A stretch of DNA of 64,000 bases, taken from the NCBI GenBank assembly GCA_031841125.1, contig CM063108.1, positions 41,968,268 to 42,032,267 on the forward strand, read 5' to 3'. The position numbers were made by a program, and so were the translations under genes. A model generated the notes under the pieces. It had not been told where the DNA came from. It did no database searches and was given only the letters and a program-made list of their open reading frames with translations. Positions 13,465-28,878 of this stretch are shown here, piece by piece. How positions within the stretch are numbered: position 1 is the first letter of the stretch; each line of letters opens with the position of its first letter. This stretch comes from Acanthococcus lagerstroemiae (lineage: Eukaryota; Arthropoda; Insecta; Hemiptera; Eriococcidae).

Positions 13465-13820
13465 AGTAGTATAGAAAGGTTGGGTTCTGGCTCGAGTTCA
13501 CATTTCTGTAAATTTATTGTTGAAAAACATTTTTCTGAATGAATTCTGTTCTCTCTGGCTCGAGTTCACATTTCTGTAAATTTTCTGTTGAAAACATTTT
13601 TCTGAGTGAGTTCTGTTCTCTCTGAATCGAGTTCACATTTTTGTACATTCGATGTTGAAAACACATTTTTGTACATTCGCTGTTGAAAACACATTTGTGT
13701 AAGTTCTGTTCTCTGTAACCAAGTTCACATTTTTGTGTTGGTGTTAAAAGAATTGATATTGTAATATAAAGTGGTCGAGTTTCCATTTTTTTTATCAGAC
13801 CACTTTTTTTTTCTAACTTG

Positions 13821-13847
13821 GATTTCAAGTGATTTTGGTTTGAAATC
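13821..13847. promoter_or_regulatory. 27-bp palindrome GATTTCAA...TTGAAATC in left TIR
   Basis: GATTTCAA-N11-TTGAAATC. The same palindrome in related form lies at 28360-28386 (right TIR) and at 15279-15305, just behind the stop of the 138-aa gene. The third site is outside the TIR, so the motif has probably been kept for a role such as protein binding, RNA 3'-end formation or replication. Role unknown. Confidence 0.5.
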
Positions 13848-14037
13848 TTAATACTAAAAAAAAAATCGAAAATTGATAACCTAGTTTAAAAAAAAAATAA
13901 ATAAAAAAATAAATAAAAAAAATAATAAAAAAAATAAAAAAAAATCGAAAATTGATAACCTAGTTTAAAAAAAAAAAAAAATCGAAAATTGATAACCTAG
14001 TTTAAAAAAAAAAAATAAAAATATTATATATTATAAA

Positions 14038-14823
14038 ATGGAAATGATTGAAAGTAAAAGCAATAACTTTAATTTTGATGACTCTACACACTGTGTATCT
14101 AAAAAGATACCATCAGTGAAAGTGATTAATCAAGAACCTGTAGGCCTCTGGATGTCTAATGAAAATTTGATGTCTTGTGAGTGGAGAAAAAATTGCAACG
14201 AGTCATGTTCAGGTGCCAGCTGTGTAGAACATTTTGTAAATACAAAACCGCACACAATTGAGACTCGAGATGGATCAATTCAAGGTAGGATTATCGATAA
14301 AAATCGTATTTTAATCATTAGACGCCAACTTAAACTTATCAGACTTTCTCGAAATGATTACTCTTTTGCTGGTTATTGGGTAAAAGGAGATACAGACTAT
14401 ATTTCAGCACGTAAGTATCTCTTAGTGTTTCTAGATGAAAAGAATCATCCACTACATAAAGAACCAATCCAACTTACAGCTAGAGGTGTATTTCAGGTAG
14501 AATTTGATAAGAATTTATTAAAGTTTAGAAAAGAATTTAAAACAGTTTATAGTAAAACACGAGGTGTAATGTCAGATTTATGGTATTCTATGCTTGTGTT
14601 CTGTCCTACTTTTGTATCAAACGTAGTAGGTTCTTTAAAAAAGAGTAGAGCATGTTGTATTGAAAATTATATTGTTCCAACAGAATCTAATTTGAACTCT
14701 TTATGTGTAGGTAGAGATAAAGAAGTCTCAAAAATTGTTGAAGCTATGTTTAATGATTCTGAAAAATGGAAAGCTGAAAATAGTAAACCTTTCATAACCA
14801 CATTAGTTCAAGAAAATGAATAA
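14038..14823 (+). CDS. TIR-borne 261-aa Cys-containing protein, left copy (unknown function)
   Basis: Starts at ATGGAAATGA within TATTATAAAATGGAAATG, the start context shared with the 138-aa gene and PolB, and ends at TAA 14821-14823. I do not recognise the family. Residues 47-62 hold a Cys cluster C-x5-C-x3-C-x4-C. The middle (about 80-175) is rich in beta-prone hydrophobic/charged alternation (RILIIRRQLKLIRLSR, KYLLVFLDEKNHPLH, IQLTARGVFQVEF), looking like a compact globular domain. No signal peptide or membrane segment is apparent. The protein is identical to the right-TIR copy (28168-27383), so the gene is present twice per element and both copies read inward. The start motif shared with PolB suggests expression with the replication genes (inference). 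Confidence 0.85.
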   Translation: MEMIESKSNNFNFDDSTHCVSKKIPSVKVINQEPVGLWMSNENLMSCEWRKNCNESCSGASCVEHFVNTKPHTIETRDGSIQGRIIDKNRILIIRRQLKLIRLSRNDYSFAGYWVKGDTDYISARKYLLVFLDEKNHPLHKEPIQLTARGVFQVEFDKNLLKFRKEFKTVYSKTRGVMSDLWYSMLVFCPTFVSNVVGSLKKSRACCIENYIVPTESNLNSLCVGRDKEVSKIVEAMFNDSEKWKAENSKPFITTLVQENE

Positions 14824-14827
14824 TGTA

Positions 14828-14853
14828 TTTTTATATGATTTTTCATATAAAAA
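14828..14853. terminator. Perfect 11-bp-stem hairpin after the TIR gene
   Basis: TTTTTATATGA-TTTT-TCATATAAAAA, 4 bp after the TAA of the TIR gene and ending 5 bp before the inner TIR border. The mirror copy is at 27353-27378. Position behind a stop codon suggests an RNA 3'-end signal, but it could also be a recombination or replication structure. Confidence 0.5.
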
Positions 14854-14861
14854 TAATAAAA

Positions 14862-15278
14862 ATGGAAATGAATAACACTTTTAAAAATTATCATTGCGAA
14901 TTAAAAAACATTGAATTCCTTAAATGTTTTAAATATATTAATATTTATTTGGAAACAGATCTATATAAATTTATGGAAAATATTGTTTATGACTTTATTC
15001 CTGAAAATAAAATTAAAGAATTTTATAAAGATTTAGAAAAAAAAGGCGAGAAAGAATTTGTAGAAGATATTAGAAAGACATTTAAATCTAAAGAACGAAA
15101 AGAAAATCAAAATATTTCAAGAAAAAATATTAATGATACAATGATAGAAACATTTGCTATTAGAACGGGAAAAAGTAAAGAAGATATAAAAAAAATTAAA
15201 ATGCTAATACTTTTAAAAAAAATAACTAAAAAAAATATTACATTTAAAAATGGAGAAATAGAAAATATAGATTATTAA
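14862..15278 (+). CDS. Unknown 138-aa lysine/isoleucine-rich protein
   Basis: First gene inside the unique region. I chose ATG 14862 because it carries the ATAAAATGGAAATGA context shared with the TIR gene and PolB; the frame is open further upstream only because the hairpin has no stop. The protein is very rich in Lys, Ile, Asn and Glu. Residues about 30-70 (YLETDLYKFMENIVYDFI, KEFYKDLEKKGEKEF) and 95-120 look alpha-helical. No catalytic motif, Cys cluster or membrane helix was recognised. The stop at 15276-15278 touches the palindrome at 15279-15305. Composition is as AT-rich as the other element genes, unlike the island that follows. Function unknown. Confidence 0.75.
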   Translation: MEMNNTFKNYHCELKNIEFLKCFKYINIYLETDLYKFMENIVYDFIPENKIKEFYKDLEKKGEKEFVEDIRKTFKSKERKENQNISRKNINDTMIETFAIRTGKSKEDIKKIKMLILLKKITKKNITFKNGEIENIDY

Positions 15279-15305
15279 GATTTCAAACAAAAATTATTTG
15301 AAATC
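15279..15305. promoter_or_regulatory. Internal copy of the TIR palindrome
   Basis: GATTTCAAACAAAAATTATTTGAAATC in two arms, directly behind the stop codon of the 138-aa gene. It matches the TIR palindromes at 13821-13847 and 28360-28386 in both arms. Confidence 0.5.
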
Positions 15306-15306
15306 T

Positions 15307-15965
15307 CTTGGAAAATGCGAAAAAAACTCACGAGAAAATTTTGCAAAACCACTGCCCCCCGCGAACGCCCTGAATTTTTATTTGCATTTTTTTTTGTCCG
15401 CGGGAGGCTGTGGAAACTCTGAGAGTTTTTTTTTTTTTCCACCAAGGCCGTCGATTCACGCATCCGAGACTGATATGGCCGGCTTCATATCAGCTCAGAG
15501 TACGCGAGTCTAAACCCGGTGTTATCTTTTTTTTTTTTTTTTCACTGTAGTTCGACCTCCAAGCACCCAGCGACGCGTGTGCACCCGCGCCATCGGAGTA
15601 CGTCAGAGATCTAGTACAGCGGTTTTTTTTTTTATTTATTTTGCATTGAATGTTACTACCTAATCAGCGCTGATTACAGAGACTTAGTAACTCGACATCG
15701 TCGACCCCGAGATAACACTTTTGATTTGCCGCCGTGACGCTGTTCAGTCACGGTTACAGTTTGTTATCCCGAGGGGAACTAGCCTAGGTGAGGTGTACGG
15801 ACCTTTCCCCTCTTTAGCACTTCCGTCTAATATGGGGAGGAAGCCTAATGTACAGCTCCTAGCTCCGATAGAGTGTTATTTAAAATTTGTATATATACTT
15901 ACGAAGCCCGTAACCAACATTACATATGAGTTTGAAAATGCAAACATAGCACTCTCATATTTATG
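15307..15965. other. GC-richer non-coding island inside the element
   Basis: Between the 138-aa gene and PolB the composition changes sharply: blocks such as CCACTGCCCCCCGCGAACGC, GTGTGCACCCGCGCCATCGG and CGACATCGTCGACCCCGAG, split by three T runs (about 15426-15438, 15528-15542, 15624-15633). No credible ORF is present; the 81-codon frame at 15721-15966 has no features. It may be a host repeat inserted into the element, a captured host segment, or a structured non-coding/regulatory region. A clear target duplication was not found. Confidence 0.45.
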
Positions 15966-16157
15966 AATAAATTATCATCGCCGTATAGATTCGATTCATG
16001 TATAATTTTTTTCAATGCCATGATGGTGTTATCATTTAATTGATTGCGCTAACCTTGTTAATTATTTGGTTGTTTTCGTGCATAAATTAGCGTGTAATGA
16101 AGAAATACGATAAATAAAAAATTGAATTACGTTAAAAGAATAATCATATATAATAAA

Positions 16158-19100
16158 ATGGAAATGATAAATAAAAAATATGCACCGAGAATGTGTATAG
16201 AGTGTAATAAAAAAATTACATACAAAAATTATGCTAGACATGTCAGATCTAAGCATGGAAGGACAACAACAACAGCAAAAGATTTAAGAAATGATTTGCG
16301 AAATTGTGGAGTGAAAGGTGTATCTAAGTTGAAAAAATCTGAATTATTGGAAATTAGAGACAAGATACAGAGACAGAGTTCGAATTTTGAGAGAGAGATT
16401 CTGAATAAATTAACGAAAAAAGAACTCATTAAAAAAGTTGGAGAAAGAAACAAAAATTTAACTAGAGCTAAAATAATTGAAAAATTCTTACAATCTCAAA
16501 ATGTAAAGTATCTCCAAGAATTTAATTTTGATGATGATAGTTTTGATGAGCCTATAGTTCGTCCTAGTGTGAGAAAGATAGATGGGTGTTGGAAAAATAT
16601 GGTAAATCAATTCTCTATAGTATACGAACCTGCAAAATATGATTTAAGAATTTATTTAGACAAAATTACAGAACTTCTTGGTAGAAAGCTTAAAAGTGAG
16701 ATGAAAAAGAAAAAGGCAATAAGCATAGGATTAATAGCAGTTGTAAACTATATAGAAATAGATCACACAACTGGAGATAAAATAGGTGATAAAGAGGCAT
16801 ATTTTCGATCAAAGCATCATATTATAGTAGATTCGAATGCAATTGAAAGTGCATTAATCTCAGCAAAAAATGAAGTTATACAAAAGTATGAGAGTTATAC
16901 TGCTCAAAATACTAAATATAAATTTGATCAAGTTATTGAAATAAATATTCAATCTGATAAAAATGACCCTTTACGTGGTGGGACTTATATTCAATTACCC
17001 AAATTTATTCAATCAAAAAAGTGTTGTATTAATGTGAAAAATATTCAAAATAGAAATTTTAAGTGTCTCAAGCAAGAAGATCTTAGATGCTTTGAATATG
17101 CGTTGGAAAGTATTTTGAATTCAGTTACAATTAATACAGATCGAGTTTCAAATTATGATATCACGAAATATGAAGAACTGAAAATGGAATATCCAGTTAA
17201 TTTAATTCCAGAAAATATTAAAAAATATGAAAAATTTCTAGGTATATCTATCAATATTTATAAGTATGAGGAAGATGAAGAGGGTATTGGTCAATTTTCT
17301 TTAATTTATAAACCAATTAGTAGTGAAAACCATGTAAATTTACTACAGTATAAGGATCATATTGTTGGGATAAAAAACTTGAGTGCTCTATTAAAAGGAA
17401 AAATACATAAATATAATGAACATGTAGAAATTTGTATGAAATGCCATAAAAGATTTAAAGATAAATTAAAATATGGGGAACATTTAAAAAATTGTATAAA
17501 TGATGAGCAAAATATAGAAATGCCAAATGAAGAGAAGAAATTTCGAAAATATTGCACAAATGGGGCAGAACAATATCATCCATACACAGTGACGTTGGAT
17601 TTTGAATGTCTATTGGAAAAAATGCAAAAAGAAACTAAATCAACAAAATATCTCCAGAAACATATTGCTAACAGTTTTTGTTTCTATTCTGACCAACAAG
17701 GAACACAGCTGGTTAGAGACTCGAATGTACAAAACTTGATGAATCAATTCAATTCTTGGTTAATAGAACATGCTCGCGCATACAACAAGATAAGAAGAAT
17801 TAATAAGCCAATGATTTGGGGACAAGATGAAGATATCAAATTCAAAGAAACTTCTCACTGTCATTTATGTAACAAGATTCTTGCAGAAAATGAAAAAGTT
17901 AGAGATCATGATCATTATACAGGAAAATTTCGTGGTGTAGCCTGTGGAGAGTGCAACTCGCATTTAAGAATGCCAAGATTCATTCCAATTTTGATTCATA
18001 ATTTAAAATACGATTCCAAAATATTTTTACAATGGTTGTTAAAATTATTTAGTGGGAATGAGAGGAAGCCTTCTGAGAAACATGATGTGAAAATTATTGC
18101 AGAAAATTGTGAAAATTATAAAACATTTTCCAAAAAGGTGGTGATAGATCATTGTGAAGTAAAACGAGATTCCACTTATTGCTGCACTTGTAAAAGAAAA
18201 TATTGGGACAAAATATTAAAAAAATGTTCCTCTTGTCAAGGAGAAAAACTGAAAATAAGTAGGAAAGGAGATAAAATACCTATAGAAATGGAATTTAGAT
18301 TTATTGACACATTAAATTTTGTGGGAATTAGTTTAGATCAAGCAGTAAAAAATCTAGCAGAAGTGAATGACTGTTTTTGTGCTAGGTGTAAAAAAGTACA
18401 GAAAATTAGGAAAGGACAATTTTTACCAATAAATGAGAATGGCATTTTAAAATATGCAGCAAAATGTGAAATTTGTGATTCTGAATTGACAAAGCCGATT
18501 AATTATAATAAATTTCAAAATATATTGAGAGAATTTAAAAAAGAAGACCTACATTTGGTTTTACAGAAGGGGATTTATCCTTATGACTGGGTTAGTACTT
18601 ATGATAAATTCTCTGAGCAATTACCATTAGATAAAAAGGCGTGGTATTCGATGTTAAATAATAAACATATATCTGATGACGATTTATCAAAAGCAAAAAA
18701 AGTTTACAAATATTTTGGATGTAAAAATTTTGGAGATTATCATGATTTATACTTGAAACTAGATACAATTCTCACAAAAGATATTTTTGATAATTTTAGG
18801 GAAATGTGTTATAAACATTATGGACTAGATCCTGTATATTATATTTCAGCACCACATTTATCAGATAGTGCTTCTTTAAAATTCACGAAACAATCGCTTG
18901 AGCTAATTACTGATCAAGAAAATTATGAAATTTATGAGAAAGGAATAAGAGGAGGGATTTCCAACATTCCTCATAGACACGCTCTTGCTAATAATTGTTA
19001 CTTTTACGATGAGAAAGAAAGAAAAACGATAAAATTAAGCAAAGAAAAAGCCAAAGAGAAAGGAATTTGGGATAGTAAAAAGCATATCAGTTATATTCTA

Positions 19101-20453
19101 TATTTAGATTGTAATAATTTATATGGGTGGGCTCTGAGTCAACCATTACCAATAGGTGAATTCTTGAACTATAATTTGCTAGCCCATCAAATTGAAGATG
19201 CGCAAGCAAAAAATTCCGAAGCAAAGAAATCTTTAGAAAGCAAATTTGAAAAATTGACTTATAAACCATCAGACTTTACTCAAGATGTAATTCTTACTCT
19301 AGATGACAATGGTGAGTATGGATATACTTTTATAGCTGATCTTGAGATTCCTACAGAATTACACGAAAAATTTAAAGATTATCCCATGCTTCCAGAACAA
19401 TATGTACCTAGAGAATCAGAATTGTCAGATTTTCAAAAAATTTTGATTGAACAAAAAATAGGTAATAAACCAAAAATGAGTAAATTAATAAGTACGCTAC
19501 ACCCAAAACATAATTATCTCATTGATTACAGAATGTTGAAAGAATGCTTGAAACAAGGTATAGTTTTAAAGAGTATAAATAATTACATAAGATTCAAACA
19601 AAAAGCTTGGATGAAACCATATATTGATAAGAATACAAGCTTAAGACAAAAAGCAAAAAATGATTATGAGAAAGATCTCTATAAATTACTCAATAATAGT
19701 GTCTATGGAAAACAAATGGAGAACGTTAGAAAAAGATGTACAGTACAAATAGTGACTACTTTAGACTCATTTCTTAAACAGAATGAGTTTGAAACAAGAG
19801 TTGTTCTTGATGAAGAAACTGTTTTACTTCACATTCAAAATAAGAAAGTAAAGTTGAATAAACCAATATTTGGGGGGTTTGTTGTTCTGGAGTTGTCAAA
19901 ATTATTAATGTTCCAGTTCTACTACAATGTTTTAAAAACGAAATATGGAGACAAAATAAGATTATTAGGAACTGATACAGATTCATTGATTGTTTATATA
20001 GAATGTGATGATGTTTATGAGGACATAAAAGAGAATCTAGATTATTACGACACTTCAGATTATTTAATGGATTGGATGCCTCAAGTAAACAAAAAAGTTC
20101 CAGGATTATTCAAGGATGAATACTTAGGAATCCCAATAAGAGAGTGGGTAGGACTAAGATCAAAAATGTACTCCTTCAGAAACGACACATCGAAAGAGAA
20201 AAAAGTGTGTAAGGGAATTAAAAGATTGAATATAGAAAGAATGAAATTTGAAATGTACAAAAACTGTTTGTTCAATAGCAAGCAAACTAAGGAAATTGTG
20301 CATGGAATTGTTTCCAAAAAGCTGAAATTGTATACTATATCAATCAATAAAATTGCACTATCTCCTTATGATGATAAAAGATACTTAATTGATGAAATGA
20401 ATACACTTCCATATGGCTATAAAAAATATTGTATAATAAATGAAACGAACTAA
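16158..20453 (+). CDS. PolB: Protein-primed-type family B DNA polymerase
   Basis: Replicates the element's linear genome from its ends. I take ATG 16158 (same TATATAATAAAATGGAAATG context as the TIR gene) rather than 16122; it gives 1431 aa. Numbered from 16122: a C2H2-like zinc finger near 25-45 (CIECNKK...HVRSKHG), a SAP-like stretch after it, exonuclease motif I LDFECL (Asp493), a Cys/His segment CHLC...RDHDHYTGKFRG...CGEC (HNH-like fold, usual in Polinton-type polymerases), motif A YLDCNNLYGWALSQPLP (Asp996), motif B LLNNSVYGKQ, and motif C GTDTDS (Asp1285, Asp1287). All catalytic residues seen are kept and there is no internal stop, so the enzyme looks functional. Length is in the usual range for Polinton PolB with an N-terminal extension. 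The last 14 bases overlap the ATPase gene. Confidence 0.95.
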   Translation: MEMINKKYAPRMCIECNKKITYKNYARHVRSKHGRTTTTAKDLRNDLRNCGVKGVSKLKKSELLEIRDKIQRQSSNFEREILNKLTKKELIKKVGERNKNLTRAKIIEKFLQSQNVKYLQEFNFDDDSFDEPIVRPSVRKIDGCWKNMVNQFSIVYEPAKYDLRIYLDKITELLGRKLKSEMKKKKAISIGLIAVVNYIEIDHTTGDKIGDKEAYFRSKHHIIVDSNAIESALISAKNEVIQKYESYTAQNTKYKFDQVIEINIQSDKNDPLRGGTYIQLPKFIQSKKCCINVKNIQNRNFKCLKQEDLRCFEYALESILNSVTINTDRVSNYDITKYEELKMEYPVNLIPENIKKYEKFLGISINIYKYEEDEEGIGQFSLIYKPISSENHVNLLQYKDHIVGIKNLSALLKGKIHKYNEHVEICMKCHKRFKDKLKYGEHLKNCINDEQNIEMPNEEKKFRKYCTNGAEQYHPYTVTLDFECLLEKMQKETKSTKYLQKHIANSFCFYSDQQGTQLVRDSNVQNLMNQFNSWLIEHARAYNKIRRINKPMIWGQDEDIKFKETSHCHLCNKILAENEKVRDHDHYTGKFRGVACGECNSHLRMPRFIPILIHNLKYDSKIFLQWLLKLFSGNERKPSEKHDVKIIAENCENYKTFSKKVVIDHCEVKRDSTYCCTCKRKYWDKILKKCSSCQGEKLKISRKGDKIPIEMEFRFIDTLNFVGISLDQAVKNLAEVNDCFCARCKKVQKIRKGQFLPINENGILKYAAKCEICDSELTKPINYNKFQNILREFKKEDLHLVLQKGIYPYDWVSTYDKFSEQLPLDKKAWYSMLNNKHISDDDLSKAKKVYKYFGCKNFGDYHDLYLKLDTILTKDIFDNFREMCYKHYGLDPVYYISAPHLSDSASLKFTKQSLELITDQENYEIYEKGIRGGISNIPHRHALANNCYFYDEKERKTIKLSKEKAKEKGIWDSKKHISYILYLDCNNLYGWALSQPLPIGEFLNYNLLAHQIEDAQAKNSEAKKSLESKFEKLTYKPSDFTQDVILTLDDNGEYGYTFIADLEIPTELHEKFKDYPMLPEQYVPRESELSDFQKILIEQKIGNKPKMSKLISTLHPKHNYLIDYRMLKECLKQGIVLKSINNYIRFKQKAWMKPYIDKNTSLRQKAKNDYEKDLYKLLNNSVYGKQMENVRKRCTVQIVTTLDSFLKQNEFETRVVLDEETVLLHIQNKKVKLNKPIFGGFVVLELSKLLMFQFYYNVLKTKYGDKIRLLGTDTDSLIVYIECDDVYEDIKENLDYYDTSDYLMDWMPQVNKKVPGLFKDEYLGIPIREWVGLRSKMYSFRNDTSKEKKVCKGIKRLNIERMKFEMYKNCLFNSKQTKEIVHGIVSKKLKLYTISINKIALSPYDDKRYLIDEMNTLPYGYKKYCIINETN

Positions 20454-21111
20454 AATAAAGAATAAGACTGAAGTTTTAAACTTTGATAATAGTGTTCCAA
20501 CTTGTAGATTGAAGGAAGTGTTTCCTAATATAATGAGATGTTGTATATGTGGTCCTAGTGGGTCTGGGAAAACGAATGTTTTATTGACTATATTAGTGGA
20601 TAGACCATTACCTGATAATGTATATTTATGTTCAAATACTTCTTATCAACCAAAGTATGAAAAGTTTCGCAAAATATTGCAAAACGAGAAACTTAAAAAC
20701 AAAAAATTTCATACAGTATCACTCGAGGATTTACCAGACCCTAATAAAATAGAAAAAGGATCAGTAGTAATCTTTGATGATATCTACACAGAAAACCATG
20801 ATAAAATAGGTAAATATTATTCATGGAGTCGTCATAATGATATTTCATGCTACTATTTATCCCAAACATATTCAAAAATTCCAAAACAACAGATTAGAGA
20901 TAATTTTAATTACTTAATTCTTTTTGAACAAGATCTTACCAATCTGACACATATTTATAACGAATATGCTAGGACCATAACATTTAATCAGTTCAAATCA
21001 ATATGTAATGATTGCTGGCAAAAACCGTATGACTTTGTAGTTATAGATAAAGAATGTGATCAGAAAAATGGTAGGTTCAAATACAAATTTGAGGAAAATT
21101 TTATATTATAA
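20440..21111 (+). CDS. FtsK/HerA-type genome-packaging ATPase
   Basis: A 223-aa protein with Walker A GPSGSGKT at residues 38-45 and Walker B SVVIFDDIY near 106-114. Size and motifs match the A32/FtsK-HerA packaging ATPases of Polintons, which pump DNA into the capsid. The Gln/Asn-containing segment YYLSQTYSKIPKQQIRDN (about 146-163) fits the sensor region of the family. The gene overlaps PolB by 14 nt in another frame and its stop abuts the next ATG. The start lies in GTATAATAAATG. No damage is seen. Confidence 0.92.
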   Translation: MKRTKIKNKTEVLNFDNSVPTCRLKEVFPNIMRCCICGPSGSGKTNVLLTILVDRPLPDNVYLCSNTSYQPKYEKFRKILQNEKLKNKKFHTVSLEDLPDPNKIEKGSVVIFDDIYTENHDKIGKYYSWSRHNDISCYYLSQTYSKIPKQQIRDNFNYLILFEQDLTNLTHIYNEYARTITFNQFKSICNDCWQKPYDFVVIDKECDQKNGRFKYKFEENFIL

Positions 21112-21957
21112 ATGAGAAAGCTAACAGATTATAATTCAAATGATATTGATTTTGTTGTAAAACAACGTGCACTTCTACAAAAAAATATTGAATGTGCAAA
21201 GTTAGGTCAAGTGAATAGAAAACTAGAAATGGAAGAAAACTATAAACCAATCATTGATACAATAAAAGACCTTAAGCCTGTAATACAACAACCAGTATTA
21301 CCTATGATTGCTGACAAACCAAGAGAAATTACCTATGAACGGTCAGAGGAAACACCAGGATTTGATATGTCTCAAAGTCTTGCATGTAGATATTTGTCTT
21401 ACTATACTAATAAAAAAATACCTACCGATTCAACTTTTGGTATTAGATACGAAAATAAAGATTATTATATAGGAAATGCACGACTCATGGAAGTTCATCA
21501 TTATGCTGATAATGATCGTGCTGATATTAAGCTAAGTAATGACACTACCCTTTATCCAGGAACACAAGGACTATGGGAATTACTAACTATGCAAAAACCT
21601 GAAAATTATACTGATGAAGACCTGAAAAATTATCAAAAAATTATTCTCAGTACAGAATCTTATCGTTCTGAGAATGGACAAATTAAAAGTAGTCGTGGGT
21701 ACAAATATTTAAATTTCATCCAACCTATGTTGATTGAGAAGGAACTCATACTTTCACATCGTGGCTCTGGTCTTAAGAAAATTTATACCAATCAGACTGA
21801 TTATAAATACTGGAACGATCCTAAAGAATTAATTGATCGATTTACAATACTGAAAGGTATGTGGGAAGCAGGTAATCATAATCCACAAATATTCAATGAA
21901 ATGACCAACATTCGGGAGGAACTGATAGAAGCCAAAAAAAATTTAAAAACCTTATAA
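21112..21957 (+). CDS. Uncharacterised 281-aa protein, Polinton-associated
   Basis: Begins right after the ATPase stop in TATTATAAATG. I do not know the function. The N-terminal quarter is helical and charged (residues 15-60). The central part has a pattern I associate with proteins of unknown function in arthropod and cnidarian virus-like elements: TFGIRYENKDYYIGNARL, then YPGTQGLWELLTMQKP and YTDEDLKNYQKIIL (about 105-175). The C-terminus is again helical (WNDPKELIDRFTILKGMWEAG, then a Lys/Glu-rich tail). No membrane segment or enzyme motif was recognised. Position between ATPase and structural genes would suit a packaging or virion role, but that is inference. Confidence 0.8.
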   Translation: MRKLTDYNSNDIDFVVKQRALLQKNIECAKLGQVNRKLEMEENYKPIIDTIKDLKPVIQQPVLPMIADKPREITYERSEETPGFDMSQSLACRYLSYYTNKKIPTDSTFGIRYENKDYYIGNARLMEVHHYADNDRADIKLSNDTTLYPGTQGLWELLTMQKPENYTDEDLKNYQKIILSTESYRSENGQIKSSRGYKYLNFIQPMLIEKELILSHRGSGLKKIYTNQTDYKYWNDPKELIDRFTILKGMWEAGNHNPQIFNEMTNIREELIEAKKNLKTL

Positions 21958-21960
21958 TAA

Positions 21961-22578
21961 ATGTTTACTAGAAAAAATCATCATTATTTGTATGAATCAG
22001 TTGAAAAAATTCAGAATAACACGGGGAAAATCTTAGAGTCTGTTCTGAAAATTGTCATAAAAGATGTTGGCGAAATTTCAGATATGATAATACAATGTAT
22101 AAAAAATGTCATTAATAATGAAAATTATACTGTTGGTATAATAGAGTATGCTAATGGTGTGAAAGAGTACATAAACAATATAAAGGATAACACAAGCAGT
22201 ATTTTACCACAACTGAAAAAGATTACTGAACATGATCAATCAGCTGTAACTGAACTGAAAAATATTACGCGGCAGGTAGTTGGATTGGCTACCACCTGCG
22301 AGAATTCACTTTTCAATATTACCCAATTAGGAGCAATTTTAACAGAATTGAAAAATATATCAAAAACAAATCAAAATATTCAGAAAATATTGGAGGAAAA
22401 TGTTCAAGAAATATTGGAGGGAAATTTACCACAAACAACTGAAAATATTCAGAAAATATTGGAGAAAAATTCACAAAAAACTGGAAATATTCAGAAAATA
22501 TTGGAGGAAAATTTACCACAAACAAATGAAAATGTTCAAAAAATATTAGAGGAAAAGACAGAAATGTTCAAAATGTAG
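21961..22578 (+). CDS. Repetitive coiled-coil protein, 205 aa
   Basis: Starts in CTTATAATAAATG, 3 bases after the previous stop. Much of the protein shows heptad-like hydrophobic spacing (ESVEKIQNNTGKILESVLKI; ITRQVVGLATTCENSLFNIT). The C-terminal third consists of repeats of NIQKILEEN with linkers LPQTTE, SQKTG, LPQTNE (about residues 138-199), matched by DNA repeats at 22370-22550. It looks like an elongated trimeric or dimeric rod. Such proteins in adeno-like viruses can be fibres or scaffolds, but nothing here proves either. No signal peptide. Repeat number probably varies between copies. Confidence 0.8.
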   Translation: MFTRKNHHYLYESVEKIQNNTGKILESVLKIVIKDVGEISDMIIQCIKNVINNENYTVGIIEYANGVKEYINNIKDNTSSILPQLKKITEHDQSAVTELKNITRQVVGLATTCENSLFNITQLGAILTELKNISKTNQNIQKILEENVQEILEGNLPQTTENIQKILEKNSQKTGNIQKILEENLPQTNENVQKILEEKTEMFKM

Positions 22579-22620: not shown

Positions 22621-23436
22621 ATGCAGTCATTAGTTGAACTTGAAGCCAAAGAACTTCATAAACCTGTGATAAAAAAATTTCAGAAAAGAAAAATTATCAC
22701 AAATGAAATCAATGAAATCTGGACAGGTGATTTATTAATTATGTCCCAGTATTCAAAAGAAAATAGGGGTTATAAGTATATGTTAGTAGTTATTGACACC
22801 TTCTCAAAAGTACTCAGGATAAAACCCCTCAAGGAAAAAACAGGGAAAGAGGTTTCTCAAGCTTTTGAGAAAATTATTGAAGAAAGCGAATATGGTCCAC
22901 CTAAAAAATTACATGTCGACAAAGGTACAGAATTTGTAAATTCAGTTTTTAAAAAATTAATGGGAAAATATAATATTCATATGTATCACACAGAGAATGA
23001 GGAAAAATCAGCAATTGGTGAGAGAGTAAACAGAACCATTAATGGGATGTTGAGAATAATTTTTGAAATTCATAAGAATCATAAATGGGTTCCATTTATA
23101 CCAGAGATATTGCACGAATATAATAATGTGAGGGTACATAGAACAATAGGAATGCGTCCTTGTGATGTGAATAAAACAAATGAACAAGAAATTTTTCATA
23201 GAATGTATTCTTCAAGTTTCTCCACGCAACCAAAATTCAAGGAAGGAGATCGTGTGAGAATACCCAAAAAGAAAGAAACTTTTGAGAACAAGTATAAGAA
23301 CAACTGGACAAGAGAAATATTTGTAGTTGACAAAGTATTCCACACAAACCCTCCCGTCTATTCTATTAAAGATTTGAAGGGTGAAGAAATTTTAGGTAAA
23401 TTTTATCGCCAGGAACTTCAAAAAACAGTTTTCTAA
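22621..23436 (+). CDS. INT: Retroviral-type (rve, DDE) integrase
   Basis: Inserts the element into host DNA, producing the 6-bp duplication. The 271-aa protein has the DDE triad at Asp37 (WTGDLL), Asp100 (HVDKGTEF) and Glu134 (AIGERVNRT). The C-terminal part (FKEGDRVRIPKKKETFENKY...WTREIFVVDKV...YRQEL) fits an SH3-like DNA-binding domain as in Polinton and Ty3/gypsy-type integrases. A complete N-terminal HHCC zinc domain is not seen. No reverse transcriptase or LTR is nearby, which excludes a retroelement origin. All catalytic residues are present and the frame is intact. Confidence 0.95.
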   Translation: MQSLVELEAKELHKPVIKKFQKRKIITNEINEIWTGDLLIMSQYSKENRGYKYMLVVIDTFSKVLRIKPLKEKTGKEVSQAFEKIIEESEYGPPKKLHVDKGTEFVNSVFKKLMGKYNIHMYHTENEEKSAIGERVNRTINGMLRIIFEIHKNHKWVPFIPEILHEYNNVRVHRTIGMRPCDVNKTNEQEIFHRMYSSSFSTQPKFKEGDRVRIPKKKETFENKYKNNWTREIFVVDKVFHTNPPVYSIKDLKGEEILGKFYRQELQKTVF

Positions 23437-23453
23437 AATTTTCTACTATAAAT

Positions 23454-24824
23454 ATGAGTAAAAACTGTGGATTATCTAAAAGAGGTGGTGATATTGTGGA
23501 TACAATTGGTAAATATGTACCATTTCCACTTCACTGGCCCGGATATAAAGCTCTTGGTCCTGGTTCGAATACAGACCTCGATATTCAAAAAGGTGTAAAA
23601 CTGAAAAATAAATTAGATGAAATAGCTATGGATCATGATGTAGATTATGCAAATACAGATGATCCTAATGAACGTGATTATGCTGATAACAGATTCACAT
23701 GGCGAGCCTGGGAGCGTGTCAAAGATCCTAATGCTAAATTAGATGAAAAAATTCCAGCATATGTAGCAGTAAATTTAATGAAATTAAAACAGAAGTTAGG
23801 TTTAGGAATTTATAAAAAATTTTATAATATAAATAATATGAGTAAAAACTGTGGATTAGGACAACATTTGCGATTACCTAATGAAATATTACCTAAAAAA
23901 GGTGACGGATTTTATATTGATCGAAAAACAACCACTAATAATCAGAAAACAGAAGGCAAAGGATTTTATATTGATCGAAAAACAACCACTAATGATCTCC
24001 CAGAAATAATGAATTATTTGAATAATTTATATGTTAACAAACAGAAAAAAAAAGGTAAAGGATTTTATATTTATCGGGAAACAGCTATCAATGGTCGAAA
24101 CAAAAAAGGGGAGGGTATCAAAGTAAGTAGATACATTAAATATCCTATCAATCCAGATAAGGAACAACTTGACAAAATTAATATTGGTGTTGAGAAAGGG
24201 GTACCTGTTGTACTAAATTTAGGATACGAAAATTTAATCAGAACTAAAAATAGCACACAGAACGAAACATATTTACCTCTAACAAAAGCACAAGTGAATC
24301 AAATTGAGACAGCAAAAACCAAGGAAAAAGGTTTAAAGCTAAAACTGAACAAAACACAACTGAAGCAGGTTAAAAATGGTGGATTCTTCCCACCAGCTAT
24401 CCTAGCAGGATTGGCTGCTATTGCAGCAGCTAAACCTGCTGTAGAAGTAGGTACTAAAATAGTAGAAACTGTAGGTAATTTAATATCAACCGCCAAGCAA
24501 GCAATTGATAATAAGAAAGCCAATGACGAGTTAGTAGAAGAGAGAAAACGTCGTAATGAAAAGTTGGAGTACAAGTCTGGTGAAGGCATAGGACAATATC
24601 TACAAATACCTAACGAAGTTCTAAAGAAAAAGAGCGTTAAAAAAATAAAAAATGGCGTTAAAAAAATAAAAAATGGCGTTAATGGTAGTATTCAAAAAGA
24701 CTGTTTAGGTGTTGAGAAAAATAAAAGAGGCGTTAAAAAAATAAAAAATGGCGTTAAAAAAATAAAAAATGGCGTTAAAAAAAATGCGATGGCGTTAAAA
24801 AAAGAAAAATTGGGGGTGACATGA
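23454..24824 (+). CDS. PLA2-like domain fused to a minor-capsid-like protein, 456 aa
   Basis: The N-terminal part matches the parvovirus-VP1 type of phospholipase A2: calcium-loop GPGSNTDL (35-42), catalytic MDHDVDY (His61, Asp62) and YADNRF (Asp78). In parvoviruses this activity opens endosomal membranes during entry; here the role is inferred. From Met129 (ATG 23838) a second segment begins with nearly the same MSKNCGL start and its own TATAATATAAATAATATG motif. It carries GFYIDRKTTTN repeats (about 148-180), a hydrophobic Gly/Ala stretch FFPPAILAGLAAIAAA (about 311-326) like membrane-active minor capsid peptides, a second GQYLQIPNEV, and a tail of GVKKIKN repeats coded by a 21-bp repeat (24634-24800). 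The tail overlaps the protease start (ATGA). It may be made as one or two proteins. Confidence 0.82.
   Translation: MSKNCGLSKRGGDIVDTIGKYVPFPLHWPGYKALGPGSNTDLDIQKGVKLKNKLDEIAMDHDVDYANTDDPNERDYADNRFTWRAWERVKDPNAKLDEKIPAYVAVNLMKLKQKLGLGIYKKFYNINNMSKNCGLGQHLRLPNEILPKKGDGFYIDRKTTTNNQKTEGKGFYIDRKTTTNDLPEIMNYLNNLYVNKQKKKGKGFYIYRETAINGRNKKGEGIKVSRYIKYPINPDKEQLDKINIGVEKGVPVVLNLGYENLIRTKNSTQNETYLPLTKAQVNQIETAKTKEKGLKLKLNKTQLKQVKNGGFFPPAILAGLAAIAAAKPAVEVGTKIVETVGNLISTAKQAIDNKKANDELVEERKRRNEKLEYKSGEGIGQYLQIPNEVLKKKSVKKIKNGVKKIKNGVNGSIQKDCLGVEKNKRGVKKIKNGVKKIKNGVKKNAMALKKEKLGVT
23838..24824 (+). CDS. Possible separately started minor-capsid-like product
   Basis: An in-frame internal start. The 21 bases ATGAGTAAAAACTGTGGATTA at 23838 repeat the true start at 23454, preceded by a TATAAAT-type motif, and the intervening codons (KKFYNINN) look like translated intergenic DNA. 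This suggests two ancestral genes joined because no stop separates them. Content as described for the full-length frame. Confidence 0.5.
   Translation: MSKNCGLGQHLRLPNEILPKKGDGFYIDRKTTTNNQKTEGKGFYIDRKTTTNDLPEIMNYLNNLYVNKQKKKGKGFYIYRETAINGRNKKGEGIKVSRYIKYPINPDKEQLDKINIGVEKGVPVVLNLGYENLIRTKNSTQNETYLPLTKAQVNQIETAKTKEKGLKLKLNKTQLKQVKNGGFFPPAILAGLAAIAAAKPAVEVGTKIVETVGNLISTAKQAIDNKKANDELVEERKRRNEKLEYKSGEGIGQYLQIPNEVLKKKSVKKIKNGVKKIKNGVNGSIQKDCLGVEKNKRGVKKIKNGVKKIKNGVKKNAMALKKEKLGVT
24634..24800 (+). repeat. 21-bp tandem repeat in the 3' end of the PLA2/minor capsid gene
   Basis: GGCGTTAAAAAAATAAAAAAT repeated about five times with one interruption. It encodes GVKKIKN and gives the protein a basic tail. 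Likely unstable in length. Confidence 0.8.
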
Positions 24825-25246
24825 TCACTCAACAAGTAATTAAAAAAATCTTAGATAATGAAAAAAAAAAAAAAATAACCATCAAGAATGACGCATTAAC
24901 TAATTTTGAAATAGAAGCATATGCTGAAAAATTGCAAATACCTCATTTCAGAGGAGTTTTTATGCTTGATGAGCTACCACCAAAAATCAAAAAATATGAA
25001 TGTGGAATTGTAAATTTAGACACTTCAGACCACTCTGGAACTCATTGGACTGCTTACTGTAAGAATGATTCACAAGTTGATTTTTATGAACCGTTTGGTA
25101 ACATTCCACCACCAGAATTAGTGAAATATTTTGGACAGTCTAGAATTACTTATAATTATACGCAGGATCAAAAACTTGATGAAACAAATTGTGGTAGACG
25201 GTGCATAGAATATTTATTAAAAATTAAAAAAAAATACTATAAATGA
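24821..25246 (+). CDS. PRO: Adenain-like cysteine protease (maturation protease)
   Basis: A 141-aa protein of the adenovirus protease/Ulp1 clan. The order of catalytic elements is right: His75 in GTHWTAY, acidic DFYEPFG (Asp87/Glu90), Gln117, and Cys124 in TNCGRRCIEYLL. The 7-residue Gln-to-Cys spacing equals that of adenovirus adenain (Q115/C122). It is expected to cleave capsid precursors during particle maturation. The start overlaps the previous stop as ATGA. It is shorter than adenovirus adenain (about 200 aa), as is usual in Polintons. The frame is intact; codon 17 onward passes through an A14 run, a slippage-prone spot. Confidence 0.92.
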   Translation: MITQQVIKKILDNEKKKKITIKNDALTNFEIEAYAEKLQIPHFRGVFMLDELPPKIKKYECGIVNLDTSDHSGTHWTAYCKNDSQVDFYEPFGNIPPPELVKYFGQSRITYNYTQDQKLDETNCGRRCIEYLLKIKKKYYK

Positions 25247-25960
25247 AATATATAAATGGTTCTTACAGTATGCTTATGAGCGGTACAGATTCTGTTCTTT
25301 ATCATGATTTTAGTGGAGTTGATGACATTATTAGACTCAACCCTAATAAAGAATGGGAAATTGGGTTAGAATCTTTCCACACATCTTATCGTTTTTTTCA
25401 ATATAACTGTAACTAAAAACAATTCACTTACTTTTTATAAGGAGGTGAACGAATTACCTACAACTATAGTACTTGATCCTGGTATTTATGAAGTAGCTGA
25501 TATTATTAAATGTATACATGAAAGTAAACATGCTAGGGCTGCTAATATAACCTTGAAAATAAATAAATACGCTCATACCATAATAATGGGGAGTCCATCA
25601 CATATAATAGATTTAAGAGATGTGACTTCTGTTGGTAATATATTGGGTTTTACTAAGCAAATTATACCAGCTGGAAAAGAAGTTGAATCTGATAGCCACG
25701 TTAAAATTTTTCCTATTGAAAGCATTAAGGGGATATGTAATGAATGTAATAACGGTAATGAAAAAATACTTTTTTATTTTCCTATATCATCACTACCCGG
25801 AGAAAAAATAATCTATACACCAAATGAAACTCAATATTATAGAGTGAGAAATAAAGAAATAAGCGAGATTGTATTAAACCTTTATGATCAGAATGGCAAT
25901 CCACTTGAAAATAATGGTGAAACATATTGGGCATTTTTAATCATACGTGAAGTACGATAA
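25243..25960 (+). pseudogene. Penton-like minor capsid protein, frame broken once
   Basis: Begins with ATG 25243 in AATACTATAAATG, overlapping the protease stop region by 4 nt. The first frame runs 57 codons, with a typical penton-type N-terminus (NPNKEWEIGLESF), then meets TAA at 25414. The rest is open in the neighbouring +1-type frame through to TAA 25960 (LPTTIVLDPGIYEVADII, VGNILGF, ISSLPGEK). The two frames overlap around the T7 run at about 25391-25397, so a single-base length change in that homopolymer explains the break. It could be a real inactivating mutation or a base-calling error. Identification rests on position between protease and major capsid gene, size (about 238 aa) and single-jelly-roll-like beta pattern. 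Two consecutive beta-rich halves, no enzyme motif. Confidence 0.75.
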
Positions 25961-25988
25961 TTAAAAAAAAAAAAAAAAAATACTATAA

Positions 25989-27170
25989 ATGAATGGTTAC
26001 GAAAGTTTTGAATTAATAGAATTCTCCACTGCTAATAATATTGATATAAATAAAAAAGATGAGGAAATTATAATTGAAATAAATACTCCTAATATTTGTA
26101 CTTTACCTTGGAAAAGCGAGGTAGTTATAGCTGGTCGTCTGATAGTACGTGATAAAGACAAAAAAATTGCGAGTTTCGATCGTAGTACAGTACAAGTAAT
26201 TAATAATGGGTTTCTCCATATTTTTAGGCAAATTATTTATAGAATTTCTGATGTTCAGGTAGATATATTGGAGTATCCAGGTGTAGCCAGCACCATTAAT
26301 GGTCTCGTTTCACTGTCCAAAACCACCAAGTATTCTAATGCAGGATGGAATCTAAATAATGATTACATGAATGTTGATGCGAATGGTTACTTCAAAGTTG
26401 CATTACCTTTCGATATGTTTCTAGGTTTTGGAACTTATAAAGAAATTCTCTTTAATGTTAGTCAATCCTTGATACTAGCAAGAGAACAACATGGTGTTAC
26501 AAATATGCTACAAGTTGACCCAAATTTAAAAGATTATACTGTGGAATTGAATCTGAAGTATATAACTTGGAGAATGCCAGTGGTGAAGCTTTCATTACAA
26601 CTTGAAAAAGAAGTTTTACCATTGTTAAATAAAGACATACCAATTCGTATGAATTTTGAGCATTGGCAATGTTTAAAGAAACCTGCTGGTAGTGTATCAG
26701 GAAAAGAATTTAGGTGGTCAATTCCTACAGATATTACATCACAATATGCTTTTGTAGTTTTCCAAAATAAAAGGAACAATGATCTCTTTGCTGATAAAAG
26801 TAAATTTGATCATTGTAATCCTTATGATGTACGTTTCAATGTCAATGGTTATGAATATCCTCGTCAGCAAATGCGATTAAATTTTAATGAAAAGGATTCA
26901 GGAGCTTTATATACATATTTTAAAAATTACAATGGAAAAGACGATGTTTTAATTGATCTTGTGCAATTTGAAAAAGAATATACTATCTTTTGCTTTGATC
27001 TTACAGGACAACCTGACGCTCTACAAACAGATGTAGCCAATGTACAAATTATATTCTCATGGCGTGATGATTTTCCTAATACAGCTGAAATATTTGTTCT
27101 TTTGAAACAACCTGTTTGTTATGAATACAAACCTATATCTAGAGCGGTTAGACCTGCTCCTAAAAACTAA
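25989..27170 (+). CDS. MCP: Double-jelly-roll major capsid protein (hexon-like)
   Basis: A 393-aa, strongly beta-patterned protein with few charged helices. NGFLHIFRQIIYRISDVQVD followed by PGVASTINGLVSLSK (about 76-112) is the pattern found near the start of Polinton/adintovirus major capsid proteins, where the protein forms pseudo-hexameric trimers. The second half (FRWSIPTDITSQYAFVVFQ ... VNGYEYPRQQMRLNF ... DVANVQIIFSWRDDFP) fits the second jelly roll. The start is in TACTATAAATG just after an A18 tract (about 25963-25980), the motif shared with the penton-like gene. Last large gene before the right TIR. Frame intact. It is shorter than many Polinton MCPs, which fits the adintovirus-like group. 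Confidence 0.85.
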   Translation: MNGYESFELIEFSTANNIDINKKDEEIIIEINTPNICTLPWKSEVVIAGRLIVRDKDKKIASFDRSTVQVINNGFLHIFRQIIYRISDVQVDILEYPGVASTINGLVSLSKTTKYSNAGWNLNNDYMNVDANGYFKVALPFDMFLGFGTYKEILFNVSQSLILAREQHGVTNMLQVDPNLKDYTVELNLKYITWRMPVVKLSLQLEKEVLPLLNKDIPIRMNFEHWQCLKKPAGSVSGKEFRWSIPTDITSQYAFVVFQNKRNNDLFADKSKFDHCNPYDVRFNVNGYEYPRQQMRLNFNEKDSGALYTYFKNYNGKDDVLIDLVQFEKEYTIFCFDLTGQPDALQTDVANVQIIFSWRDDFPNTAEIFVLLKQPVCYEYKPISRAVRPAPKN

Positions 27171-27206
27171 AAAAAAAAAAAAAAAAAAATATTCTTATAA
27201 ATAGGT

Positions 27207-27398
27207 ATGCAATCAGAAAACAATTCAGAGAACAATTCAGAAAATAAATTCAACTGGATGTGTATTATAATTTTCTGTTGGAATATTATCGAACAGGTGT
27301 TTAAAAAAATGAGAAAAAAGAAAAGAAAAAAAAGACAGTCAAATAAGTATTATTTTTATATGAAAAATCATATAAAAATACATTATTCATTTTCTTGA
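27207..27398 (+). CDS. Small membrane-anchor/basic-tail protein, 63 aa
   Basis: Residues 15-30 (FNWMCIIIFCWNIIEQVF) form one short hydrophobic segment, followed by KKMRKKKRKKR. The N-terminus repeats SENNSEN. The start follows an A20-22 tract and TTCTTATAAATAGGTATG, similar to the other late-type starts. The last 17 codons lie inside the right TIR and its stop overlaps the 3' end of the minus-strand TIR gene by 16 bp, so the C-terminus is dictated by TIR sequence. It could be a membrane protein or a DNA-condensing basic peptide; unproven. Confidence 0.55.
   Translation: MQSENNSENNSENKFNWMCIIIFCWNIIEQVFKKMRKKKRKKRQSNKYYFYMKNHIKIHYSFS
27353..27378. terminator. Mirror copy of the TIR hairpin
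   Basis: TTTTTATATGA-AAAA-TCATATAAAAA, lying between the convergent ends of the 63-aa gene and the right TIR gene; on the minus strand it is the same structure as 14828-14853. Confidence 0.5.
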
Positions 27399-28168
27399 AC
27401 TAATGTGGTTATGAAAGGTTTACTATTTTCAGCTTTCCATTTTTCAGAATCATTAAACATAGCTTCAACAATTTTTGAGACTTCTTTATCTCTACCTACA
27501 CATAAAGAGTTCAAATTAGATTCTGTTGGAACAATATAATTTTCAATACAACATGCTCTACTCTTTTTTAAAGAACCTACTACGTTTGATACAAAAGTAG
27601 GACAGAACACAAGCATAGAATACCATAAATCTGACATTACACCTCGTGTTTTACTATAAACTGTTTTAAATTCTTTTCTAAACTTTAATAAATTCTTATC
27701 AAATTCTACCTGAAATACACCTCTAGCTGTAAGTTGGATTGGTTCTTTATGTAGTGGATGATTCTTTTCATCTAGAAACACTAAGAGATACTTACGTGCT
27801 GAAATATAGTCTGTATCTCCTTTTACCCAATAACCAGCAAAAGAGTAATCATTTCGAGAAAGTCTGATAAGTTTAAGTTGGCGTCTAATGATTAAAATAC
27901 GATTTTTATCGATAATCCTACCTTGAATTGATCCATCTCGAGTCTCAATTGTGTGCGGTTTTGTATTTACAAAATGTTCTACACAGCTGGCACCTGAACA
28001 TGACTCGTTGCAATTTTTTCTCCACTCACAAGACATCAAATTTTCATTAGACATCCAGAGGCCTACAGGTTCTTGATTAATCACTTTCACTGATGGTATC
28101 TTTTTAGATACACAGTGTGTAGAGTCATCAAAATTAAAGTTATTGCTTTTACTTTCAATCATTTCCAT
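27383..28168 (-). CDS. TIR-borne 261-aa Cys-containing protein, right copy
   Basis: Encodes the same 261 residues as 14038-14823, without a single amino-acid difference. It reads inward, convergent with all the unique-region genes. Start context TATTATAAAATGGAAATG is also kept. Complete identity implies a recent copy or active homogenisation of the TIRs. Function unknown; the Cys cluster is at residues 47-62. Confidence 0.85.
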   Translation of the reverse strand: MEMIESKSNNFNFDDSTHCVSKKIPSVKVINQEPVGLWMSNENLMSCEWRKNCNESCSGASCVEHFVNTKPHTIETRDGSIQGRIIDKNRILIIRRQLKLIRLSRNDYSFAGYWVKGDTDYISARKYLLVFLDEKNHPLHKEPIQLTARGVFQVEFDKNLLKFRKEFKTVYSKTRGVMSDLWYSMLVFCPTFVSNVVGSLKKSRACCIENYIVPTESNLNSLCVGRDKEVSKIVEAMFNDSEKWKAENSKPFITTLVQENE

Positions 28169-28359
28169 TTTATAATATATAATATTTTTATTTTTTTTTT
28201 TTAAACTAGGTTATCAATTTTCGATTTTTTTTTTTTTTTTAAACTAGGTTATCAATTTTCGATTTTTTTTTATTTTTTTTATTATTTTTTTTATTTATTT
28301 TTTTATTTATTTTTTTTTTAAACTAGGTTATCAATTTTCGATTTTTTTTTTAGTATTAA

Positions 28360-28386
28360 GATTTCAAACCAAAATCACTTGAAATC
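28360..28386. promoter_or_regulatory. 27-bp palindrome in right TIR
   Basis: Inverted counterpart of 13821-13847; see also 15279-15305, which matches it best read in this orientation. Confidence 0.5.
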
Positions 28387-28878
28387 CAAGTTAGAAAAAA
28401 AAAAGTGGTCTGATAAAAAAAATGGAAACTCGACCACTTTATATTACAATATCAATTCTTTTAACACCAACACAAAAATGTGAACTTGGTTACAGAGAAC
28501 AGAACTTACACAAAAGTGTTTTCAACAGCGAATGTACAAAAATGTGACTTCAACAGCGAATGCTCAGAAAAGTGTTTTCAACAGTGAATGTACAAAAATG
28601 TGAACTCGATTCAGAGAGAACAATACTTACACAGAAATATGAACTCGGTCTAGGATTGTACAGAACTTACACAGAAAAATGTTTTCAACAGTGAATGCTC
28701 AGAAATGTGAACTCGAGCCAGAGAGAACAGAACTCACTCAGAAAAATGTTTTCAACAGAAAATTTACAGAAATGTGAACTCGAGCCAGAGAGAACAGAAT
28801 TCATTCAGAAAAATGTTTTTCAACAATAAATTTACAGAAATGTGAACTCGAGCCAGAACCCAACCTTTCTATACTACT

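What the first reader, a model, noticed from the sequence alone, without database searches (positions are those of the whole stretch)
13465..28878. Nearly intact adintovirus-like Polinton caught inside a LINE, with exact boundaries
The 6-bp duplication CAGGGT, the matched AGTAGTATAG/CTATACTACT ends and the continuous LINE frame across the empty site (EFYETLYR then VQEEA) fix the insertion to the base. The PolB, ATPase, integrase, protease and major capsid frames are all open. This looks like a young, perhaps still competent endogenous virus, not a fossil.
Basis: partly seen in the sequence, partly recalled or inferred. Interest (0 to 1): 0.9.

Follow-up and report, generated by a model that had tools for sequence, protein, structure and literature searches.

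The report
Young Polinton with toursvirus-shared end genes
A 15-kilobase virus-like element of the Polinton (adintovirus) kind sits, with clean ends, inside a dead copy of a jumping gene in an animal-type genome; it looks young and almost complete, but one probable capsid gene is split, and it shares its end-repeat gene with a large insect virus.

Summary
13465-28878 is a 15,414-bp Polinton/adintovirus-type provirus. Its ends AGTAGTATAG/CTATACTACT are flanked by the duplication CAGGGT, inside a decayed LINE whose frame continues across the empty site. The TIRs are 1,394 and 1,531 nt, differ by 3 substitutions plus indels in repeats and homopolymers, and each carries a complete DUF5895 gene. 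PolB, ATPase, integrase, PLA2/core, protease and MCP are open; PolB has the terminal-protein and OTU-type domains of polintons. 'Young' is supported; 'still competent' is not. The putative minor capsid gene is split by a frameshift in a T-run, and no second copy, read or RNA could be checked (genome server did not complete).

Two features were not in the finding. (1) TATAA or TAATAA lies within 12 nt 5' of 11 of 12 gene starts, against 22 of 319 other ATGs; TACTATAAAT occurs in the 64 kb only at the PLA2/core, minor capsid and MCP starts. This is unlike a Pol II TATA box and reminiscent of large-DNA-virus initiators. (2) The TIR gene's nearest named relative is a Dasineura toursvirus protein, 48% identical. 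A virophage-like life with a toursvirus-like helper is possible but untested.

The parts
13459..13464 (.). left copy of 6-bp target-site duplication CAGGGT
   Evidence: sequence
28879..28884 (.). right copy of CAGGGT
   Evidence: sequence
13465..14858 (+). left terminal inverted repeat, 1,394 nt, with 67-bp and 28-bp tandem repeats in its outer part
27348..28878 (-). right terminal inverted repeat, 1,531 nt; longer mainly by repeat-array units (107 + 28 nt)
14038..14823 (+). DUF5895 gene, copy in left TIR (261 aa)
   Evidence: PF19247 E 3.3e-15; 48% identical to a Dasineura jujubifolia toursvirus 2a protein
27383..28168 (-). DUF5895 gene, identical copy in right TIR
14862..15278 (+). orf138, unknown; start chosen at 14862 (earlier in-frame ATGs exist, the first at 14823), just inside the inner edge of the TIR
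   Evidence: no Pfam match above cut-off
15320..16100 (.). ORF-poor, GC-richer (41%) island with T-runs, origin unknown
16158..20453 (+). protein-primed DNA polymerase B: zinc finger-like N-end (by eye), terminal-protein domain, OTU-type domain, Endonuclease VII-like insert, exonuclease and polymerase motifs
20440..21111 (+). packaging ATPase (A32/FtsK type), Walker A GPSGSGKT and B VVIFDD
   Evidence: Pox_A32 E 3.7e-7
21112..21957 (+). p281, unknown
21961..22578 (+). p205, repeat-bearing, coiled-coil-like (by eye)
22621..23436 (+). retrovirus-type integrase (rve); acids D37, D100, E134 picked by eye
   Evidence: PF00665 E 3.8e-13
23454..24824 (+). phospholipase A2-like domain plus basic, repeat-bearing core-like part
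   Evidence: PF08398 E 8.8e-6; HDVD
24821..25246 (+). cysteine protease, adenain-like by eye (GTHW...YEPFG...NCG)
   Evidence: no Pfam match above cut-off
25243..25413 (+). putative minor capsid gene, 5' piece with start signal
25370..25960 (+). putative minor capsid gene, 3' piece in another frame; the gene is split in a T-run at 25392-25398
   Evidence: identity by position only (searches gave no convincing match)
25989..27170 (+). [quoted passage not shown]
   Evidence: PF21738 E 7.4e-38; 52% identical over 98% to P0001 of equal length
27207..27398 (+). small ORF (63 aa), picked by eye, running into the right TIR
23444..23453 (+). start signal TACTATAAAT directly before the PLA2/core ATG
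25235..25244 (+). start signal TACTATAAAT overlapping the ATG of the putative minor capsid gene
25981..25990 (+). start signal TACTATAAAT overlapping the ATG of MCP
16155..16167 (+). AAAATGGAAATGA at the PolB start; also at 14035 and 14859 (+) and 28171 (-), nowhere else in the window

Best explanation
It is a recently integrated provirus of the adintovirus/Polinton kind (Eupolintoviridae-like). Shown here: terminal inverted repeats with a 6-bp target duplication; a PolB that carries its own terminal-protein domain and an OTU-type domain; a packaging ATPase; an rve integrase; and a DJR capsid protein. Inferred from what is known of polintons: the PolB terminal-protein domain primes replication at the TIR ends, the OTU domain frees it, the integrase joins the linear ends to the target 6 bp apart, and ATPase, protease and capsid proteins make particles. 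Each TIR carries a gene for a DUF5895 protein, probably a replication accessory; that role is an inference from one phage context. Nearly all genes begin at a TATAA(A)-ATG signal, most simply a signal for starting transcription or translation. As it stands, the copy has its putative minor capsid gene split, so it is a near-intact rather than a proven working virus.
Confidence: 0.88

Rival explanations
1. A conditional, virophage-like provirus. Its genes start at initiators read by the RNA polymerase of a large DNA virus of the same host (toursvirus, entomopoxvirus or similar), with which it also exchanged the TIR gene; it would replicate only when that virus is present and might blunt it.
For: TATAA/TAATAA within 12 nt of 11 of 12 gene starts against 22 of 319 other ATGs (p 2e-11) and 0 of 23 flank ORF starts; still 9 of 11 against 24 of 320 (p 1.6e-8) under the strictest choice of starts. 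An unsupervised 5-mer search finds TATAA before 11 of 12 starts; 0 of 2,000 random sets of 12 other ATGs reach that. TACTATAAAT occurs 3 times in 64 kb, all at virion-gene starts. Pox late genes start at TAAAT(G/A) (PMC5294985, passages; PMC3061580, passages). Mavirus-type virophages carry the late promoter motif of their giant virus (PMC8547959 and PMC10945749, passages). DUF5895 is shared with toursvirus DjTV2a. Ascoviruses encode RNA polymerase subunits and a VLTF2-like factor (PMC12655742, passages).
Against: The regular expression was chosen after looking at the starts; 6-, 7- and 8-mers are much less striking than the 5-mer (52, 44 and 79 of 2,000 random sets do as well). No toursvirus DNA was at hand to compare. 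The ascovirus MCP motif in print is TAATTAAA, not this. Pox late promoters have a core with T residues upstream, whereas here the stretch before MCP is A-rich. One shared gene can pass between viruses without any helper relation. The one other Polinton at hand, L002, no close relative, has the signal at only 3 of 11 starts.
Confidence: 0.2
2. The TATAA-ATG signals serve translation (A-rich leader, stop codons for re-initiation on long messages) and the element is read by host RNA polymerase II from promoters in or near the TIRs.
For: Several starts overlap or abut the end of the gene before: PolB/ATPase, ATPase/p281, p281/p205 (3 nt), PLA2/protease, protease/minor capsid. Genes are densely packed, nearly all on one strand (coding 84% of the element).
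Against: The signal is also present at DUF5895 and PolB, where no gene ends within 100 nt upstream. Among equally AT-rich ATGs it is still rare (17 of 99 against 11 of 11 starts, p 5e-8).
Confidence: 0.4
3. A fully competent, freely replicating young virus; the minor capsid split is only an assembly slip in a homopolymer.
For: The other long frames are open; TIRs almost identical; the split lies in a run of T.
Against: No read evidence; a true mutation looks the same.
Confidence: 0.4
4. An old insertion kept alike by gene conversion between the TIRs.
For: TIR arms can exchange by conversion (general knowledge).
Against: Open frames across the 12.5 kb between the TIRs, apart from the split gene and the island, are hard to keep without selection or youth.
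Confidence: 0.07

Closest known systems
Adintoviruses (Eupolintoviridae, formerly Adintoviridae), e.g. Drosophila-associated adintoviruses 1-3 (13.3-14.6 kb) and the Mayetiola alpha type
   Same: PolB with OTU-type domain, rve integrase, A32/FtsK-type ATPase, capsid gene, similar size (PMC8363768 passages; PMC11071296 passages; renaming in PMC12451622, passages); best viral structure match is a Drosophila-associated adintovirus 2 protein
   Different: TIR gene of the DUF5895 family; a PolB lineage whose nearest kin are unnamed (P0004-P0008), while the 5 named animal proteins among the 120 listed are 33-40% identical; start signals as described
Polinton/Maverick elements
   Same: TIRs starting with AG, 6-bp duplication (both rules recalled), PolB, integrase, ATPase, protease-like and capsid genes
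   Different: complete gene inside the TIR (no paper on this was found or searched for directly)
Mavirus and EMALE virophages
   Same: integrating, rve integrase, protein-primed PolB, DJR capsid (recalled in part), conserved start motifs
   Different: helper virus unknown and no shared motif shown; this PolB has exonuclease motifs, while the mavirus pPolB lacks the exonuclease domain (PMC11071308, passage)
Dasineura jujubifolia toursvirus 2a (Nucleocytoviricota)
   Same: DUF5895 protein, 48% identical over 94%
   Different: a 142.6-kb large virus; the rest of its genome was not compared

Membership tests
Adintovirus / Eupolintoviridae | PolB with N-terminal OTU-like domain (definition in PMC11071296, passage) | tested here: met
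   Model pLDDT 84; Drosophila-associated adintovirus 2 protein best viral match, E 1.6e-19; Cys311 39 of 40, His401 40 of 40. Solved OTU domains only weakly matched (E 0.014 and worse).
Adintovirus / Eupolintoviridae | hexon recognisable by BLASTp against other adintovirus hexons | not tested
   No named adintovirus hexon was at hand; the MCP search gave one unnamed protein, 52%, out of 1,890 candidates. DJR domain by Pfam.
Adintovirus / Eupolintoviridae | rve integrase with C-terminal chromodomain | tested here: inconclusive
   rve core E 3.8e-13; no chromodomain family reached E 0.1.
Polinton/Maverick | terminal inverted repeats and 6-bp target duplication | tested here: met
Polinton/Maverick | protein-primed PolB with terminal-protein domain | tested here: met
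Polinton/Maverick | packaging ATPase and DJR MCP | tested here: met
Polinton/Maverick | Ulp1/adenain-type protease | tested here: inconclusive
   H...E...C pattern by eye; no family above cut-off
[quoted passage not shown]
   position only; no convincing match; gene split
Virophage (works like) | gene starts share the late-promoter motif of a helper virus | tested here: inconclusive
   motif present; helper DNA not at hand
Virophage (works like) | replication depends on another virus | not testable with these tools
   needs infection data

The most novel reading that the evidence does not exclude
An endogenous animal Polinton that works like a virophage: replication-side genes (DUF5895, orf138, PolB; AAAATGGAAATGA) and virion genes (PLA2/core, minor capsid, MCP; TACTATAAAT) carry two classes of start signal right at the ATG, read by the RNA polymerase of a large DNA virus such as a toursvirus, with which it also shares the gene in its TIRs. 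It would be a silent provirus that wakes on, and perhaps defends against, that virus.
Probability: 0.18. Interest if true: 0.88.

Novelty: new variant of a known kind. Interest (0 to 1): 0.55.

Why it matters
Intact animal polintons with exact ends are useful for asking whether polintons still move as viruses. The gene-start signals and the toursvirus-shared TIR gene turn 'do animal polintons parasitise large DNA viruses, as mavirus does in protists?' into a question that RNA 5' ends and toursvirus-infected insects can settle.

Tried and rejected
The genome search on the window's own assembly was tried 20 times with the same request and never answered. So other copies, the empty site elsewhere and large-virus insertions in the same genome are untested.

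Viral-contig scans with PolB alone, MCP alone, A1, A2 and A3 confirmed no relative. A6 gave one distant Polinton, L002.

The AlphaFold model of the DUF5895 protein from 3 sequences is useless (pLDDT 33) and was not searched. The PolB profile matched no PDB sequence at E 0.01. Absences in the fold lists are not used as evidence.

Pol II TATA box as the meaning of TATAA was rejected: a TATA box lies 25-30 bp upstream of the RNA start (PMC5294985, passage), which here would fall past the ATG. Programmed frameshifting as the cause of the split gene was considered and cannot be decided.

Rfam for the window and the 15.3-16.1 kb island: nothing above a family's cut-off. Of five island stretches folded, z was -3.3, -2.9, 0.8, -1.7 and -0.8; two stretches from genes gave -0.3 and 0.6; the whole island z -2.2 on 20 shuffles. 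A small-RNA array is not claimed.

Papers asked for but not held: PMC7198669, PMC8502044, PMC11426020. Ten paper searches: among the rows listed (titles and starts of abstracts) none speaks of helper-virus promoters in animal polintons; the one paper holding 'DUF5895' is on cyanophages (passage). Lists were capped, so this is no proof of absence.

Against my own count: the twelve gene starts were fixed before the test but after I had looked at their upstream bases. orf138 was given its fourth in-frame ATG, not the first, and the 63-aa ORF was picked by eye. With orf138 at its first ATG it is 10 of 12 against 23 of 319; without the 63-aa ORF 10 of 11; with both changes 9 of 11 against 24 of 320, p 1.6e-8; without both genes 9 of 10.
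Full report
Boundaries. The element runs from 13465 to 28878 (15,414 bp). CAGGGT stands on both sides (13459-13464, 28879-28884) and the outermost bases are AGTAGTATAG and CTATACTACT. Joining the flanks with one CAGGGT restores one frame, EFYETLYR|VQEEATTGQDIEK, with stops before and after, so the host sequence is a dead retroelement copy. Endonuclease and RT pieces lie in order on either side (12217-12768; 28925-29290 and 29335-29472), with weak Pfam scores below cut-off. This fits a real insertion better than an assembly join, since the target is one interrupted gene.

Terminal repeats. The left TIR has 1,394 nt and the right 1,531 nt. A global alignment shows 3 substitutions, one 107-nt and one 28-nt repeat-unit indel and two single-base homopolymer differences; the substitutions and both long indels lie in the outer part that holds 67-bp and 28-bp tandem repeats. 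The inner block 13804-14858 has no substitution in 1,055 nt. With an assumed 3e-9 per site per generation this bounds the age at about 4.7e5 generations; with 1e-9 at 1.4e6. Repeat-unit changes may predate insertion, and gene conversion is possible. The inner edge of the TIR (14858/27348) lies 35 nt past the DUF5895 stop, so each arm holds a whole gene.

Genes. In order: DUF5895 (TIR), orf138, an ORF-poor island, PolB, ATPase, p281, p205, integrase, PLA2/core, protease, putative minor capsid gene, MCP, a 63-aa ORF, DUF5895 (TIR, opposite strand). Motifs present: PolB DFE, YLKLD, DCNNLYG, NSVYGK, DTDS; ATPase GPSGSGKT and VVIFDD; PLA2 HDVD. The integrase acids D37, D100 and E134 were picked by eye, as were the protease residues; D100 and E134 have 33 residues between them where 35 is usual (recalled). 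The MCP is full-length against P0001 (393 aa each, 52% identical, 98% covered; the only protein of 1,890 candidates to pass).

The split gene. Directly upstream of MCP a frame opens at the ATG 25243 and closes at 25413; the longer frame 25370-25960 continues the coding composition (GC1 0.40, GC3 0.17; 5' piece 0.40 and 0.24), and the change falls at a run of seven T. The simplest reading is one gene cut by a frameshift. That it is the minor capsid gene rests on position (recalled from polinton maps); neither piece gave a convincing match to the L002 protein that I took by eye for its counterpart (E 1.6 and 1.1), and the longer piece matched no Pfam family or PDB sequence convincingly. I did not read it through.

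The TIR gene. DUF5895 is PF19247 at E 3.3e-15. Of 121 candidates from the large protein set two passed E 1e-3: a protein of Dasineura jujubifolia toursvirus 2a (48% over 94%) and an unnamed one (48% over 90%). A distant phage relative (tblastn E 0.1; PF19247 E 4.8e-8) sits between an exonuclease and a helicase in a cluster with a DNA polymerase, which hints at a replication role. A place in the TIR doubles the gene dose and puts it next to the ends where protein-primed replication starts; this is inference.

Start signals. Twelve gene starts were tested; they were fixed after their upstream bases had been seen. TATAA or TAATAA lies within 12 nt upstream in 11 of 12 (not the protease), against 22 of 319 other + strand ATGs at 14030-27340 (Fisher p 2e-11). 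orf138 was given a later in-frame ATG and the 63-aa ORF was picked by eye; with orf138 at its first ATG and without the 63-aa ORF it is 9 of 11 against 24 of 320 (p 1.6e-8), without both genes 9 of 10. Among ATGs with at least 10 of 12 A/T before them it is 11 of 11 against 17 of 99 (p 5e-8), and first ATGs of flank ORFs of 80 aa or more give 0 of 23. Without choosing a motif, the commonest 5-mer in -20..-1 is TATAA, at 11 of 12 starts; 0 of 2,000 random sets of 12 other ATGs reach that (maximum 8); for 6-, 7- and 8-mers the same test is weaker (52, 44 and 79 of 2,000). In dinucleotide shuffles of the upstream 60 nt the mean is 1.3 and 0 of 2,000 reach 11. TACTATAAAT occurs three times in 64 kb, both strands, all at virion-gene starts. 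AAAATGGAAATGA occurs four times, at the starts of both DUF5895 copies, orf138 and PolB. A Pol II TATA box would start RNA beyond the ATG; pox late promoters start RNA within TAAAT(G/A) (PMC5294985, passages). Against: the ascovirus MCP motif in print differs (TAATTAAA, same call), the stretch before MCP is A-rich, and L002 shows the signal at 3 of 11 starts (32 of 569 ATGs in all). I therefore hold a start-signal role likely, and a helper virus possible only.

Host. The window has a WD40-repeat gene piece (52234-52638, PF00400 E 1.2e-8), which by recall looks like FBXW5, and retroelements; an animal, perhaps an arthropod, but not identified.

Verdict. A real, young, near-intact adintovirus-type provirus: a known kind of thing with an unusual TIR gene and a striking, so far unexplained set of gene-start signals. 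Competence is unproven and the split gene speaks against it.

Noticed in passing
window 15320-16100: ORF-poor island of 41% GC in an element of about 30% GC, with three stretches of about 100 nt each ended by T-runs (T13, T16, T11); two of these fold better than shuffles (z -3.3, -2.9), the third does not (z 0.8). Captured host RNA gene, SINE or Pol III RNAs are all possible.
   Followed up: partly
window 15278-15306 and 13821-13853: A small hairpin (GATTTCAAA...TTTGAAATC) follows orf138 and recurs, 91% alike over 33 nt, within both TIRs.
   Followed up: no
window 23454-24824: The PLA2/core ORF repeats MSKNCGL and GxGFYI-type modules and has 21-bp basic repeats; possibly several small core peptides cut by the protease.
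   Followed up: no
window 22396-22556: 45-bp repeats in p205, weak matches to phage tape-measure families, probably only coiled coil.
   Followed up: no
window 2500-4000: GC-rich stretch (up to 63% per 1 kb) with a long ORF 2589-3650; no Pfam match at E 0.01.
   Followed up: partly
L002: IMG/VR contig of 17.4 kb: another Polinton, unnamed, with a PolB and, by eye, integrase, ATPase and capsid-like genes, and TATATA stretches before several starts.
   Followed up: partly
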